A DNA stretch of 22,368 nt, taken from the IMG/VR virus record IMGVR_UViG_3300013102_000077, positions 1 through 22,368 of that record; one strand, written 5' to 3'. Shown piece after piece: positions 5,721-15,312 of this stretch. The position numbers and the translations under genes are program-made. Source of the DNA: a virus. How positions within the stretch are numbered: the first letter of the stretch is position 1; each line of letters starts with the position of its first letter. The notes beneath the pieces were generated by a model. The model was not told where the DNA came from. It ran no database searches and worked only from the letters and a program-made list of their open reading frames with translations.

Positions 5721-7049
5721 ATGGATATTTCTAGGCAAATGACTAAGACAAACCCGACCTTCTGCGGAGCTGAACCAACTTGGGCAAATGCTTGTGTAGG
5801 GAATAATGGAAATCCTAGCTACGTAGAATATTCGATCGGCTTTTCCAAGGCCGCAAATATTCTGATAGACCTAGTACTTAAAGATCGGAGCAACAACTTA
5901 AGCGTTGATGAGTTTGTTTATCCTGTCTGCTTCAACATGCGCCACTCAGTCGAACTAAGACTAAAGGGCGCCATTGACGAACTTATAGAAATCGCCAAGA
6001 TAAAGAAAATAACGCTAAACTTCAATTCCTCTGGCTCACACGACATCGAATCAATATGGACATTCTTCAAGACTCAATCTGAAATCCTTGACAGCAGATA
6101 TTCAGATATCAATAAAAAAATCGAACCTACAATCCTAGATATTGCACAAGTTGACCCGACCGGCCAGACATTTCGTTACGCATTGAGCAACACAGCTCAA
6201 AAGCACCTGACAGACGTATCACTCATTAACTTTATAGTCCTTAAAGACAAATTCAACGAGCTCGAACTAAATTTAGACAAGCTACACCAGCTAAACACAT
6301 GGCTACAAACTGAATACCGTCAAGGAACATTCACAACAAAACTATCAAGATCGCAAATTTTCAAAATTGCGAAAAAACTACCCCATACAGACAAATGGCG
6401 AGAAGCACAATTCACAGAAATCAAGGAGCAAGTAAAAACCGAGTACGACTTGGGAAGCAGAGACTTTTCGAAAGTAATTGACATAATCAGATGTCATTAC
6501 AGTCTCGCTCCCATCATAGGGGCGCCTCTCCCGATTAAAGGGATAACCGAACCTCAGTTACTATTCTTTATCGACGAGTGGATTAAAAAAAACCCAGACA
6601 TTAAAAAAGCGCCGGACTCCAGCTTCACAGAAATAAGCTTCGACAAAGAAAGTTTAATTGCCAGAATGCTTGCAAGAGCAATTGAAAAGACGGATATATG
6701 GGACACTGTAGCTGACGAAGTGTGCTCAGGCTACCTCGCCGGGCTTGAGTCTCTATTTTACTTCGCTAGAGATACAACTTTCACAGAATACTACAATACA
6801 ATCTATGACATCCACATCAGAGAGGCAAACAATACACTAAAATTCAATAAAACCCTTAAAGATGACTTCATGCACATATTTAACAAAACAAGCGCACTGA
6901 ACAACATCCTTCTTTCCCTTTATGCTCTAGGGCACGCCAAATTAGCAGAGTCTATTGTTACAACGCACGAACTCGAAATCTCGTTCCGGTGGCTGCATGA
7001 CGCGAGAACAGGGCAGCGGTTTATCTACCCAGACTTTGCCGCTTACTAG
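5721..7049 (+). CDS. Unrecognised 442-aa cargo protein inserted between Q and holin
   Basis: This gene runs against the phage operon on both sides, is visibly more AT-rich than its neighbours, and sits where lambdoid phages often carry acquired (moron) genes. The protein is soluble and mostly helical, with no signal peptide or membrane segment. An N-terminal element NMRHSVELRLKGAIDELIEI (about residues 72-91) resembles the arginine-histidine helix of some HEPN-like and defence-associated hypotheticals, but the R-x4-6-H active-site spacing is not met there. The C-terminal part contains a long helical section from about residue 310. No strong ribosome site precedes the ATG at 5721; MTKTNPTF at residue 7 is an alternative start. 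A defence or superinfection role is inference from place and composition only. Confidence 0.8.
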   Translation: MDISRQMTKTNPTFCGAEPTWANACVGNNGNPSYVEYSIGFSKAANILIDLVLKDRSNNLSVDEFVYPVCFNMRHSVELRLKGAIDELIEIAKIKKITLNFNSSGSHDIESIWTFFKTQSEILDSRYSDINKKIEPTILDIAQVDPTGQTFRYALSNTAQKHLTDVSLINFIVLKDKFNELELNLDKLHQLNTWLQTEYRQGTFTTKLSRSQIFKIAKKLPHTDKWREAQFTEIKEQVKTEYDLGSRDFSKVIDIIRCHYSLAPIIGAPLPIKGITEPQLLFFIDEWIKKNPDIKKAPDSSFTEISFDKESLIARMLARAIEKTDIWDTVADEVCSGYLAGLESLFYFARDTTFTEYYNTIYDIHIREANNTLKFNKTLKDDFMHIFNKTSALNNILLSLYALGHAKLAESIVTTHELEISFRWLHDARTGQRFIYPDFAAY

Positions 7050-11975: not shown

Positions 11976-11988
11976 GTCGCCCCTCCAT

Positions 11989-12050
11989 ACGGGAATACCC
12001 ATATTGTAATTTATGGGAATACCGATTTGCAAGGATATGGGAGCACCCGT
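11989..12050. promoter_or_regulatory. Three CI/Cro operators, 24-bp phased (OR-like)
   Basis: The sites fit ATGGG-N4-CCCAT: 11989-12002 (ACGGG-AATA-CCCAT), 12013-12026 (ATGGG-AATA-CCGAT) and 12037-12050 (ATGGG-AGCA-CCCGT). Their starts are exactly 24 bp apart. Site 1 abuts the PR -10 box, site 2 fills the PR spacer and site 3 fills the PRM spacer, so the logic can match OR1-OR3. Two more copies lie at PL (15271-15309). Confidence 0.85.
12003..12032 (-). promoter_or_regulatory. PR-like promoter (cro and early leftward operon)
   Basis: On the minus strand the -35 is TTGCAA (12032-12027) and the -10 is TACAAT (12008-12003), with an 18-bp spacer. Operator 2 lies in the spacer and operator 1 just downstream of the -10. 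The cro ATG at 11975 follows after a short leader with GGAGG. Confidence 0.75.
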
Positions 12051-12055
12051 AATAC
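12027..12055 (+). promoter_or_regulatory. PRM-like promoter, leaderless cI transcript
   Basis: On the plus strand the -35 is TTGCAA (12027-12032) and the -10 is TAATAC (12050-12055), with a 17-bp spacer containing operator 3. The cI ATG begins 7 bases after the -10, so the message should start at or one base before the ATG, as in lambda PRM. The -35 hexamer is its own complement and is shared with PR. Confidence 0.72.
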
Positions 12056-12062
12056 TCAACGA

Positions 12063-12734
12063 ATGGAATTTAAAGACCGATTAAAGGCCGCAAGGCGGCA
12101 CGCGAAGCTCAACCAAGTAGAACTTGCCCTGAAAGCAGGAATTACTCAGACGTCGATTTCTGATCTTGAGCGCGGCAAATCAAAAGCATCTACGCACGTC
12201 GTAAAGATTGCGGACGCCTGTGGTGTGAATGCCAAATGGCTCTCAGACGAGATTGGTCCGATGACTGGACCAGCGAGCTCGGTGTCGTCCCAGCATTCCG
12301 AATCGAACGTCGGTGCAACTCGCCAGCCCATCGAGTCCTTCCGCTATCCAGTTATCAGCTGGGTGGCCGCCGGCGCATGGGCCGAAGCTGTCGAGCCCTT
12401 CCCACCTGGATTCTCCGATCGGTACGAGCTCTCGGATTACAACTCAAAAGGTCCCGCGTTCTGGCTTGAGGTCAAGGGCGACTCGATGACATCGCCAGTT
12501 GGGATGAGCATCACTGAGGGAACGCTGATCCTGGTCGACACTGAAGCCGATGCCCAATCTGGAAAGCTGGTGGTGGCCAAGCTTGCAGACAGCGATCAGG
12601 CCACATTCAAAAAACTGGTTGATGACGGCGGGCGGCGCTTCTTGAAGCCGCTGAACCCCGCTTACCCTATTGAGATGTGTGCAGAAAATTGCCGGATCGT
12701 CGGCGTTGTCGTCAGGGCGCTGCAGAAGCTTTAG
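12063..12734 (+). CDS. CI-like repressor (HTH + S24 autoprotease)
   Basis: This 223-aa lysogeny repressor has an N-terminal helix-turn-helix at about residues 14-45 (LNQVELALKAGITQTSISDLERGKS) and a linker from about 65 to 92. A LexA/CI-type S24 peptidase domain follows: self-cleavage site Ala103-Gly104 in SWVAAGAW, nucleophile Ser141 in VKGDSM, and general base Lys183 in ATFKKL. RecA-stimulated cleavage would thus induce the prophage. The ATG at 12063 lies 7 bases after the PRM -10 and has no Shine-Dalgarno site, fitting a leaderless message; the frame stays open upstream to 11865, but that part covers the operators. Confidence 0.92.
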   Translation: MEFKDRLKAARRHAKLNQVELALKAGITQTSISDLERGKSKASTHVVKIADACGVNAKWLSDEIGPMTGPASSVSSQHSESNVGATRQPIESFRYPVISWVAAGAWAEAVEPFPPGFSDRYELSDYNSKGPAFWLEVKGDSMTSPVGMSITEGTLILVDTEADAQSGKLVVAKLADSDQATFKKLVDDGGRRFLKPLNPAYPIEMCAENCRIVGVVVRALQKL

Positions 12735-12768
12735 GTATCCGGTGCGACGGGATTCGTAGGAGTTCGCC

Positions 12769-12840
12769 ATGAAAGATTGTACGGGGCCAGTCGGAATAGG
12801 TATCTCGACCTGGATTTCCAAGGACATGTCTGCTCACTGA
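12769..12840 (+). CDS. Possible 23-aa peptide after cI
   Basis: A 23-codon frame (MKDCTGPVGIGISTWISKD start) lies 34 bases after cI, with TAGGAG 7 bases before its ATG. It could be co-transcribed with cI. The strong ribosome site is the only support; it may be a remnant of a gene lost when the cargo pair entered. Confidence 0.3.
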   Translation: MKDCTGPVGIGISTWISKDMSAH

Positions 12841-12886
12841 GTCTGCAGACACACCGCCAAGGAGTTGTTCACGTAATACGTTACCA

Positions 12887-12904
12887 TTTTCCCAGTAGGG
12901 AAAA
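12887..12904. promoter_or_regulatory. Inverted repeat upstream of the sce7725-like gene
   Basis: A perfect 7-bp inverted repeat, TTTTCCC-AGTA-GGGAAAA, lies 30 bases before the gene start. A second palindrome, GTCTGCAGAC, stands at 12841-12850. Either may be an operator of the cargo pair; no bound protein is evident. Confidence 0.4.
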
Positions 12905-12934
12905 ACGATATCGTAAACATGCCAAGGAGAAAAC

Positions 12935-14077
12935 ATGGAAAAGTTAGCGGCAGTAAAGTATTTCCCTTCCGTCAGAGCTGGTCAATATGACCTTCTTGCA
13001 CTACAAGAAATCGAAGAAGAACGAAAAAAGAAAATAACACCTATAATTTCAGCTCGTGGAAATACACTAAAACAAATAACCGACTTTGCGACAAAGTGGG
13101 GTGACAACTATTTCTGGATCGACTCCTCGCGATTCGGACAAGACACTGAGGATCCTGTTGCCAATCCCGCTAACAATGACGACAATAATTTCGAAAACAA
13201 GTTACAGATGTTTCTGTCACTACAGGAAATAAACAGAAAGACCCTACCGATTCTGGGATTCAAGTCAGGTGACAGCCAGAGATCAGCCGTTCAGTTTGGG
13301 CTTAAGCTTCTAAAAGAATTTCCGCTCGTTGCACTTCGCGTTGAGGGGACCGGGAGTGTGCTAGACAAAAACATATCTATTGCAAGAGCATTCCTTAATG
13401 CGGTAAGCGACGACGACTTCAATAAGACCATTCTAATAGTGGACTTATGGAGCACTACCGACATGCCTTCTCTTCAAGAAGAAGGCCCAGTCATGAAGAT
13501 ACTCAACCTGCTAAATGAATACCCTATAAAGAACGTCGTCACCCTGAGTACTTCGTGGCCAGAGGATCGACCTGACCGAGGAATGAATACTTACGCACAG
13601 TGTATTGACCCACTATGGCAAGCGATTGTTCACTCTCAGCTCTCAGAGAGGGGGGTCAAATGCTTCTATGGCGATTATGCCGCAACAAATCCCGTCAAGG
13701 ATCTGCTTGACGACTATGACCCAAGCAAGATGTCACAGCCAATCCCCTTCGCAGGCTATTACACTTCGTGCTCTTGGTATCAAGAGCGCCAAGGAGCAGG
13801 TGGGGAGAACGAGAAGTACAGAGAAATCGCAAAATCATTTCAGAAGCTCCCCGGCTACCACACTGACAACTTTTGTTGGGGCACGAGAGCCATCGCGGCT
13901 ATCGCATCAACAAAGAGAGAGAAAGCCGGACATATGGCTTACTGGAACAAAATCCGCATAAACCAACATATTTGCGCGATGATAAAAGATATCGATGATG
14001 GTCTGCTTCAACGAATTTTAAAACCACAGCAGACTGATGAAATAATTGATCAAGATGATCTAGATGAGTTGATTTAA
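12935..14077 (+). CDS. Beta/sce7725-family protein in the rex position
   Basis: This 380-aa protein begins VKYFPSVRAGQYDLLALQE (residues 7-25) followed by KKITPIISARG. This is the opening I associate with the beta protein family (PF14350) and with NCBI sce7725-family proteins, which start YFP-LRGKQ-ELLAL...I-PIIEP. The fold is likely a TIM-barrel-like alpha/beta protein, with regular strand-helix repeats, for example LPILGFKSG, LVALRVEGTG, ILIVDLWS and NVVTLSTSWP. There is no signal peptide or membrane segment. AAGGAG stands 5 bases before the ATG. Its stop overlaps that of the convergent sce7726-like gene. It is more AT-rich than the phage genes. The function is unknown; defence or superinfection exclusion is inferred from its place between cI and PL. 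Confidence 0.8.
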   Translation: MEKLAAVKYFPSVRAGQYDLLALQEIEEERKKKITPIISARGNTLKQITDFATKWGDNYFWIDSSRFGQDTEDPVANPANNDDNNFENKLQMFLSLQEINRKTLPILGFKSGDSQRSAVQFGLKLLKEFPLVALRVEGTGSVLDKNISIARAFLNAVSDDDFNKTILIVDLWSTTDMPSLQEEGPVMKILNLLNEYPIKNVVTLSTSWPEDRPDRGMNTYAQCIDPLWQAIVHSQLSERGVKCFYGDYAATNPVKDLLDDYDPSKMSQPIPFAGYYTSCSWYQERQGAGGENEKYREIAKSFQKLPGYHTDNFCWGTRAIAAIASTKREKAGHMAYWNKIRINQHICAMIKDIDDGLLQRILKPQQTDEIIDQDDLDELI

Positions 14078-14646
14078 TTAGATCGGCGAGCTTTCAACCG
14101 AGCCAAAACGTAGGCTCGGATCGTTTCAACAGTAATCTCTTTGGAAACCTTGGCTCTGATTTCAGCCTTGGTTTCCTTGGAGCGAGTAGGTATATCATTC
14201 CGTCGACAAAGCTCATCAAGTTCATCACGCCACAATAAACCCGTCAGATCATAAGCGCTGAGCGCGTTGTTGCGTTGAGCAGCGCGCAGCATAGCGACAC
14301 CACCAAGATCATCCACAAGCAAAACACCGGTTTTCTTGGGAGTCATGGACAAGGCTTTCTCAAGATGTCGACCGTGCGTGCAAAGCCATACCTCATCAAA
14401 AACATTGAAGTAAGCCTCACATTGAGCTGGCCATCGTTTAAGATTATCGGCACCGGATTTTATTTCAAACCCTACGAGCCTGCCGTTTGCCAGGGCCAAA
14501 TCAGCCCTGAAGGATGTGTCGATAGTCTTGCCGCTTTTATGGTTTACAAAACCAAGTTCATCGATAAGCACGTCATCTGAACTGTTAGATAAGTTTGTGG
14601 AAACCCAGTCCCTTAGTCTTTCTCGAATATCCATTGGGCTCAACAT
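14074..14646 (-). CDS. sce7726-family PD-(D/E)XK nuclease-like protein
   Basis: This 190-aa protein matches my memory of the sce7726 family. A PD-(D/E)XK centre is visible: Glu30 in VLIDELGF, Asp49 in SFRADLAL, Glu61 and Lys63 in VGFEIKSG, and a following Gln75-x3-Tyr79 in WPAQCEAYF, then VFDEVWLCTHG. The C-terminal part (about 125-190) is basic and helical (AKVSKEITVETIRAYVLARLKARR), fitting nucleic-acid binding. AAGGA stands 8 bases before the ATG at 14646, and a TATAAT lies at 14687-14682. The gene converges on the sce7725-like gene with overlapping stops. The locus names sce7725 and sce7726 are adjacent, which suggests a standing functional pair. Confidence 0.8.
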   Translation of the reverse strand: MLSPMDIRERLRDWVSTNLSNSSDDVLIDELGFVNHKSGKTIDTSFRADLALANGRLVGFEIKSGADNLKRWPAQCEAYFNVFDEVWLCTHGRHLEKALSMTPKKTGVLLVDDLGGVAMLRAAQRNNALSAYDLTGLLWRDELDELCRRNDIPTRSKETKAEIRAKVSKEITVETIRAYVLARLKARRSN

Positions 14647-14681: not shown

Positions 14682-14750
14682 ATTATAGGTAATTATCCAG
14701 CATTCCTCCAGAACCAATGATCCATAAGCCCTGCGCAATGCTGGCTTTTT
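14682..14750. promoter_or_regulatory. Gene-free stretch before DUF1654: TATAAT box and long-loop hairpin
   Basis: In the 326-bp gap between the sce7726-like and DUF1654 genes, TATAAT stands at 14687-14682 on the minus strand, without a good -35, and could drive the sce7726-like gene. A perfect 8-bp stem CCAGCATT/AATGCTGG (14697-14704 and 14737-14744) with a 32-base loop is followed by CTTTTTG on the plus strand; it may be a weak terminator. From 14751 to 14913 I see nothing supportable. Confidence 0.4.
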
Positions 14751-14913: not shown

Positions 14914-14954
14914 TTGCCAAAAAACAATCAGACAAATACTGTATATTCATACAG
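14914..14954 (+). promoter_or_regulatory. SOS promoter: -35/-10 with a LexA box
   Basis: A perfect CTG-N10-CAG LexA box, CTGTATATTCATACAG, lies at 14939-14954. It overlaps the -10 TACTGT (14937-14942), which has -35 TTGCCA (14914-14919) at 17-bp spacing. LexA bound here would block the promoter until DNA damage. Confidence 0.82.
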
Positions 14955-14972: not shown

Positions 14973-15224
14973 ATGCAGCAACTCGCCCACCCTACAAGCC
15001 CAGCAAAAAACTCCTACGAGCTTGTTGGTCGACGAATTCAACGCCTGATCGCAGCGCCGAATGTGCAGAAGATCCAATCCATAATTGTTACCAGGCGTGA
15101 AGACGAGCCCGCTGACGCATGGCTAAAGGTCATTCAGGAGATCGAGGAGACCAGCGGAGTACGCATGGAGCGTCTTGAGGGAGGTGCCGTCCGGATCGGA
15201 TGGCGGGAGTACTACGAAGCGTAA
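14973..15224 (+). CDS. DUF1654 protein under SOS control
   Basis: This 83-aa protein has the DUF1654 pattern: an SYELVGRRIQRLIAAPNVQK helix (about residues 14-33), then IIVTRREDEPADAWLKVIQEIEE and a C-terminal beta-hairpin with GVRMERLEGGAVRIGW. DUF1654 is a small family typical of Pseudomonas with no known activity. AGGAG stands 7 bases before the ATG at 14973. The gene has its own LexA-box promoter and its own terminator, so it is a single-gene SOS unit between the cargo pair and PL. This place and control recall the LexA-regulated antirepressors of other phages, but that role is inference. Confidence 0.82.
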   Translation: MQQLAHPTSPAKNSYELVGRRIQRLIAAPNVQKIQSIIVTRREDEPADAWLKVIQEIEETSGVRMERLEGGAVRIGWREYYEA

Positions 15225-15252: not shown

Positions 15253-15270
15253 ATCACTTCGGAAAACAAT

Positions 15271-15312
15271 ATGGGAATACCCATTGACTCAATATATGGG
15301 CTTGCCTATATT
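15271..15312 (+). promoter_or_regulatory. PL-like promoter with two CI operators
   Basis: The -35 TTGACT (15284-15289) and -10 TATATT (15307-15312) have a 17-bp spacer, near the sigma-70 ideal. A perfect operator ATGGGAATACCCAT (15271-15284) touches the -35, and a second, ATGGG-CTTG-CCTAT (15296-15309), covers the spacer and -10. Their starts are 25 bp apart. These match the three OR-like sites, so CI should repress this promoter, which drives the rightward operon from 15615. Confidence 0.85.

What the first reader, a model, noticed from the sequence alone, without database searches (positions are those of the whole stretch)
12935..14646. sce7725/sce7726-like pair in the rexAB position of a lambdoid prophage
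Between cI and PL, where lambda carries the exclusion genes rexAB, lie two non-phage-like genes: one of the beta/sce7725 type and one with a complete PD-(D/E)XK centre (E30, D49, E61/K63, Q75/Y79) of the sce7726 type. They converge and overlap by their stop codons, and each has its own ribosome site. Seen: motifs, order, overlap and lower GC. Known from memory: the two family names come from neighbouring loci, so pairing is not unique to this prophage. Inferred: a two-component nuclease-based immunity system expressed in the lysogen. I know of no described function for the pair.
Basis: partly seen in the sequence, partly recalled or inferred. Interest (0 to 1): 0.85.

Follow-up and report, generated by a model that had tools for sequence, protein, structure and literature searches.

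The report
P4-type defence pair missing its toxin
A Pseudomonas-type prophage carries, in the slot where phage lambda keeps its exclusion genes, two genes related to part of satellite phage P4's known anti-phage system but without that system's killer gene, which makes it a good candidate for a simpler, untested form of a known bacterial immune system.

Summary
Between cI and the OL/PL operators of a lambdoid prophage fragment lie two convergent genes sharing a TTAA stop: a Beta_protein (PF14350) and a sce7726-family protein (NF033832) with an invariant RecB-type PD-(D/E)XK centre and a matching fold model. The pair is not without precedent. It corresponds to beta and cII of satellite P4's gop-beta-cII system, shown by others to block lambda and P1; P4 has the same convergent layout and its CII is itself a sce7726 protein.

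What differs is that the toxin gene gop is missing. This is a clade trait, not a local loss: gop is confined to P4-like branches, while the window sits in a fully supported gop-less clade. Gop-less pairs are under strong purifying selection, are inherited as a unit independently of cI, and recur downstream of cI; two related prophages carry gop-plus and gop-less versions in the same slot. Natural beta knockouts with intact sce7726 argue against a simple toxin-antitoxin pair. Best reading: a gop-independent exclusion cassette in which the nuclease acts with beta. Defence by this two-gene form is inferred, not shown.

The parts
12063..12734 (+). cI repressor (HTH plus S24-type region), presumed to share its transcript with beta
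   Evidence: phrog_4 183.8 bits; no terminator-like site between it and beta
11988..12051 (.). OR region: three palindromic CI/Cro operator-like sites
   Evidence: pattern search
12924..12929 (+). RBS-like AAGGAG of beta
   Evidence: read from sequence
12935..14077 (+). beta (Beta_protein PF14350, 380 aa), TIM-barrel-like model
   Evidence: PF14350 98 bits; PADLOC beta 75 bits; model pLDDT 90.2 and Foldseek TIM barrels
14074..14077 (.). TTAA shared by the stop codons of both genes
14074..14646 (-). sce7726-family (P4 CII-like) PD-(D/E)XK protein, 190 aa
   Evidence: NF033832 131.5 bits; PADLOC cll 99 bits; model pLDDT 95.3; invariant catalytic residues
14654..14659 (-). RBS-like AAGGAA of sce7726
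   Evidence: read from sequence
14682..14687 (-). perfect TATAAT, possible -10 box of sce7726 (no good -35; not found by the consensus scan)
   Evidence: read from sequence; suggestive only
15270..15312 (+). OL/PL: two operator-like palindromes with a PL-like promoter TTGACT-17-TATATT

Best explanation
A prophage exclusion (anti-phage) cassette: the beta-cII half of the P4 gop-beta-cII family in a gop-independent, two-gene form, inserted in the rexAB slot. Beta is read on from cI in the lysogen; sce7726 is read from its own promoter on the opposite strand. The RecB-type nuclease sce7726 is harmless by itself. Upon infection it is licensed or targeted by beta, a TIM-barrel-like partner, and cuts nucleic acid, stopping the invader or the infected cell. 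Shown here: family membership, invariant catalytic centre and fold model, rex position, co-inheritance of the two genes, purifying selection, clade-wide absence of gop, and survival of natural beta knockouts. Inferred: nuclease activity, the beta-sce7726 interaction, the trigger, the transcripts, and defence itself. I put about 0.6 on defence and about 0.3 on beta being the activator of the nuclease.
For: PADLOC 'beta' and 'cll' models both hit. P4 carries gop, beta (+) and cII (-) convergently; tblastn links the window protein to P4 CII at 26.8% identity, E 4e-7, and P4 CII passes the sce7726 model with 151 bits. gop-beta-cII protects against lambda and P1 and Gop is toxic without beta (PMC9122126). 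Beta-family PD-lambda-2C is needed for defence but not for neutralising the toxin (PMC9519451). Beta is convergent in 55 of 55 non-redundant viral/phage/plasmid loci that have it (52 overlapping) and in 28 of 28 genome loci. The cII tree puts the window in a 31-row gop-less clade, SH-aLRT 100. dN/dS is 0.02-0.17 in gop-less pairs. A CI-like repressor lies co-directionally upstream in 20 of 80 loci. L020 and L051 share 77-80% identical flanks but carry gop-less versus gop-plus cassettes in one slot. Mantel test in 17 rex-position loci: beta-CII r 0.67, p 0.0005; cI-CII r 0.03, p 0.35. E. coli: gop-less type in 93 of 5426 genomes, P4 type in 39. IS1 insertions in beta with intact sce7726 in two strains. 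BstA, a proven prophage defence, sits in the same slot (PMC8585504).
Against: No gop-less pair is known to have been tested. In P4 the measured toxicity belongs to Gop, so the pair may lack the effector. Some chromosomal Pseudomonas copies are not obviously in prophages and lie beside ordinary genes. An sce7726 gene without beta exists in a phage operon (L012), and the Rac-type pair lies in an early region near a RusA-type resolvase gene, not next to cI. The consensus scan found no sigma-70 promoter for sce7726. Structural matches are weak (TM about 0.3), so the fold assignment rests also on motif and topology.
Confidence: 0.55

Rival explanations
1. Two-gene toxin-antitoxin form: sce7726 is a toxic nuclease held in check by beta, as P4 beta holds Gop; infection upsets the balance and kills the cell.
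For: P4 beta neutralises Gop (PMC9122126); both genes are kept together.
Against: IS1 insertions in beta with intact sce7726 in two E. coli strains and frameshifted beta beside intact sce7726 in L023, L104 and L113 (sequencing error not excluded) indicate that sce7726 without beta is tolerated. sce7726 without beta also occurs (L012, L017, L018).
Confidence: 0.15
2. Remnant of gop-beta-cII that has lost its effector and no longer defends.
For: gop is absent and is the toxic component in P4.
Against: The lack of gop is a clade trait, the catalytic centre is invariant in 40 homologues, and dN/dS is 0.02-0.17 for both genes.
Confidence: 0.15
3. Phage-own DNA metabolism: a RecB/Cas4-type nuclease used in recombination or repair of the phage's own DNA.
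For: Nuclease fold; the Rac-type pair lies in an early region near a RusA-type gene; sce7726 without beta in a Myxococcus phage operon (L012).
Against: The window's pair lies in the lysogen-expressed slot with beta co-directional to cI, is found on plasmids and chromosomes outside prophages, and moves independently of cI.
Confidence: 0.1
4. Defence in trans: the pair needs a Gop-like effector encoded elsewhere in the host or in the missing part of the prophage.
For: The window is a fragment, and relatives combine beta with different killer modules: gop, and a PD-lambda-2_B-like gene in L015.
Against: Gop is next to beta wherever it was found, and whole clades lack it.
Confidence: 0.05

Closest known systems
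gop-beta-cII system of satellite phage P4 (PADLOC gop/beta/cll)
   Same: Homologous beta and CII, same convergent tail-to-tail order, phage-borne; prophage versions (Pasteurella phage Pmp11, L032, L044, L051) also follow cI
   Different: No gop; CII is 190 aa instead of 264 aa (238-301 aa ORFs in gop-containing loci); separate clade in the cII tree
PD-lambda-2 (Vassallo 2022)
   Same: Component C is a beta-family protein (window beta hits it at 7e-11) and is required for defence
   Different: Its HigB-like A and Xre-peptidase B are absent here; a plasmid locus (L015) has a PD-lambda-2_B-like gene, beta and a convergent sce7726 together
NCBI sce7725/sce7726 gene pair (co-directional, e.g. L136)
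   Same: sce7726 partner with the same nuclease domain
   Different: sce7725 is about 305 aa and follows sce7726 on the same strand; the window's beta fails the sce7725 cut-off
lambda RexAB and Salmonella BTP1 BstA
   Same: Position downstream of cI in the lysogen-expressed slot; exclusion function described for both (PMC8585504)
   Different: Not the same protein families; only the place and the presumed role are shared

Membership tests
gop-beta-cII (P4) | beta (PF14350 / PADLOC beta) present | tested here: met
gop-beta-cII (P4) | cII (sce7726 / PADLOC cll) present | tested here: met
gop-beta-cII (P4) | beta and cII convergent | tested here: met
gop-beta-cII (P4) | gop membrane toxin upstream of beta | tested here: not met
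   gop profile finds nothing in the window ORFs; only 200 bp lie between cI and beta
gop-beta-cII (P4) | protects against phages | not testable with these tools
   shown by others for P4's version only (PMC9122126)
NCBIfam sce7726 (NF033832) | score above curated cut-off | tested here: met
   131.5 bits against 70
NCBIfam sce7725 (NF033831) | score above curated cut-off | tested here: not met
   24.8 bits against 60
PD-(D/E)XK superfamily, RecB/Cas4-like | alpha-beta-beta-beta-alpha-beta core with D...ExK and QxxxY | tested here: met
   model pLDDT 95.3 with that order of elements; residues invariant or nearly so; Foldseek top hits Cas4-family SSO0001, ACE1, DinG, Exo5, Can2 (weak scores)
PD-(D/E)XK superfamily, RecB/Cas4-like | Cas4-type conserved cysteines | tested here: not met
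   none of the three Cys is conserved; so RecB-like, not Cas4
PD-lambda-2 | A (HigB-like) and B (Xre-peptidase) beside C | tested here: not met
   beta is preceded by cI and 200 bp

The most novel reading that the evidence does not exclude
Gop-less beta-sce7726 pairs are a widespread, self-sufficient defence type in which a TIM-barrel-like protein licenses a RecB-type nuclease. P4's gop-beta-cII and PD-lambda-2 would be derived forms that added different killer genes to this core, and the strict convergent 3' overlap would couple the expression of the two genes.
Probability: 0.3. Interest if true: 0.65.

Novelty: new variant of a known kind. Interest (0 to 1): 0.5.

Why it matters
It links two widely annotated gene names without known function (beta family, sce7726 family) to a proven but mechanistically unexplained defence system, and shows that the gene thought to do the killing is absent from most relatives found here. 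That makes the role of the other two proteins directly testable, and it would add a further exclusion family to the repressor slot of lambdoid prophages after RexAB and BstA.

Tried and rejected
Looked for a hidden gop between cI and beta and elsewhere in the window: none by profile. The small ORFs 12712-12936 (-) and 12777-12947 (+) were considered but not taken as genes: L020 has only 55 bp between cI and beta. Looked for a conserved alternative third gene in gop-less loci: the proteins between cI and beta in L021 (108 aa) and L022 (100 aa) are unrelated to each other and to gop. A 353-aa ORF upstream in L013, L110, L114, L117 and L121 reflects a shared neighbourhood, not a system component. 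Sequence searches of solved structures found no relative. No terminator-like site was found after cI or at the beta/sce7726 junction. The distant alignments A1 and A2 were too divergent for some collection scans, so closer sets were used. The locus sample is ranked by similarity to the window, so the convergence counts hold for this part of the family; co-directional sce7726-sce7725 pairs exist.

Full report
What is there. The window is a 22.4-kb virus record of a lambdoid prophage, Pseudomonas-type by its phage matches, with portal, large terminase, integrase, O, lambda-P, CII-activator, cro and cI genes. Three palindromic operator-like sites stand between cro and cI, and two more at 15270-15309 over a PL-like promoter. 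Exactly between cI and OL/PL lie the two genes of the finding: beta, 12935-14077 (+), running with cI, and a sce7726-family gene, 14074-14646 (-), running against it. They share TTAA as stop codons. Both are lower in GC than their surroundings.

What the proteins are. The first is a Beta_protein (PF14350, 98 bits) and hits PADLOC 'beta' and, more weakly, PD-Lambda-2_C. It does not reach the sce7725 cut-off. The second is sce7726 (131.5 bits) and PADLOC 'cll'. In 40 homologues E30, D49, E61, K63 and Q75 are invariant and Y79 nearly so. The model (pLDDT 95.3) has the alpha-beta-beta-beta-alpha-beta order of PD-(D/E)XK nucleases, with ExK on the third strand and QxxxY on the following helix. The best structural matches are RecB/Cas4-type and related nucleases, though with weak scores, and no Cys cluster is conserved. 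The model of beta (pLDDT 90.2) matches TIM barrels, including triosephosphate isomerases and aldolases. Several of its best-conserved residues (P105, D170, D247, Y275) fall on or at the ends of predicted strands, which would fit a ligand or active site; this is inference.

The known relative. Satellite P4 has gop, beta (+) and cII (-) in the same convergent order. P4 CII is itself a sce7726-family protein (151 bits) and is found by the window protein. Rousset et al. (PMC9122126) report that gop-beta-cII protects against lambda and P1 and that Gop is toxic without beta. Vassallo et al. (PMC9519451) found that PD-lambda-2C, related to the P4 antitoxin, is required for defence though not for neutralisation. 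From memory, not tested: Ghisotti et al. 1990 described a terminator between beta and cII whose mutation disturbs beta expression; a putative terminator is annotated there in the P4 record.

The difference. Gop, a short membrane protein with two apparent transmembrane helices and a coiled-coil-like tail (judged from sequence), is absent. A gop profile finds it in P4-type loci, weakly in Pasteurella phage Pmp11 and in L123, and not in the window. On a tree of 88 CII proteins gop is confined to P4-like branches. The window belongs to a 31-row clade without gop (SH-aLRT 100), and a second large clade of 42 rows also lacks it. CII ORFs next to gop are 238-301 aa long; elsewhere most are 181-235 aa. 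Lack of gop is thus an old property of this lineage.

Is the two-gene form functional and a unit? Beta is convergent to sce7726 in all 55 non-redundant viral, phage and plasmid loci that have it (52 overlapping) and in 28 of 28 genome loci. dN/dS is 0.02-0.17 for both genes in gop-less pairs. In 17 loci downstream of cI the distances of beta and CII correlate (r 0.67, p 0.0005) while those of cI and CII do not (r 0.03, p 0.35), so the pair moves between prophages as a cassette. L020 and L051 have similar DNA on both sides (77-80%) but a gop-less and a gop-plus cassette, respectively, in the same slot. The related Pseudomonas phage SC_8_H2H8_2017 has matching flanks but other genes there. A CI-like repressor lies directly upstream, same strand, in 20 of 80 loci with enough sequence. 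In E. coli a gop-less type is in 93 of 5426 genomes and the P4 type in 39. In the genus of G001 (Pseudomonas fluorescens) 16 of 119 sampled genomes, the centre genome included, carry sce7726, a patchy distribution.

Mechanism. Two E. coli strains have different IS1 insertions in beta with intact sce7726, and beta is frameshifted beside intact sce7726 in L023, L104 and L113 (sequencing error is not excluded). So sce7726 is probably not a toxin that beta must restrain. Together with the positive requirement for the beta-like PD-lambda-2C, the likeliest scheme is that beta licenses or targets a nuclease that is otherwise harmless. The slot after cI is the one used by RexAB and BstA and is described as a mosaic hotspot read with the repressor in lysogens (PMC8585504). 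The steps from infection to nuclease action are inferred.

Limits. The locus sample is ranked by similarity to the window, and other relatives have co-directional sce7726-sce7725 genes. Some chromosomal pairs sit beside ordinary genes. The window is a fragment, so a gop elsewhere in this prophage cannot be formally excluded. No complex prediction was possible.

Noticed in passing
window 14939-14954 and 14973-15224 (+): CTGTATATTCATACAG, a LexA-box-like palindrome, just upstream of a DUF1654 gene (PF07867, 71 bits) between the pair and PL; a 31-bp block around it is conserved in Pseudomonas phage SC_8_H2H8_2017 (L003 6510-6540) although the neighbouring DNA is replaced.
   Followed up: partly
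window 5721-7049 (+): A 442-aa ORF in the lowest-GC stretch of the window (about 40%), on the strand opposite to the terminase genes; no match in Pfam, PHROGs, PADLOC or phage records. Possibly another cargo gene.
   Followed up: partly
L015 2965-6268: Sinorhizobium plasmid with a PD-lambda-2_B-like Xre-peptidase gene, beta and a convergent sce7726, which combines parts of the two known systems.
   Followed up: partly
window 14030-14074 (beta C-terminus): Acidic tail ending in a hydrophobic residue (DDLDELI), like P4 beta (DEEDLI) and L032 (DEEDFDDFDF); resembles the tip of single-strand binding proteins by eye. Absent in the Rac-type beta.
   Followed up: no
L135-L138: Co-directional sce7726-sce7725 pairs in genomes of the genus Pseudomonas, another arrangement of the same nuclease family with no known function.
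   Followed up: no
L018 1-3591: sce7726-family gene on a Staphylococcus aureus plasmid directly after a type I restriction R-subunit gene, without beta.
   Followed up: no
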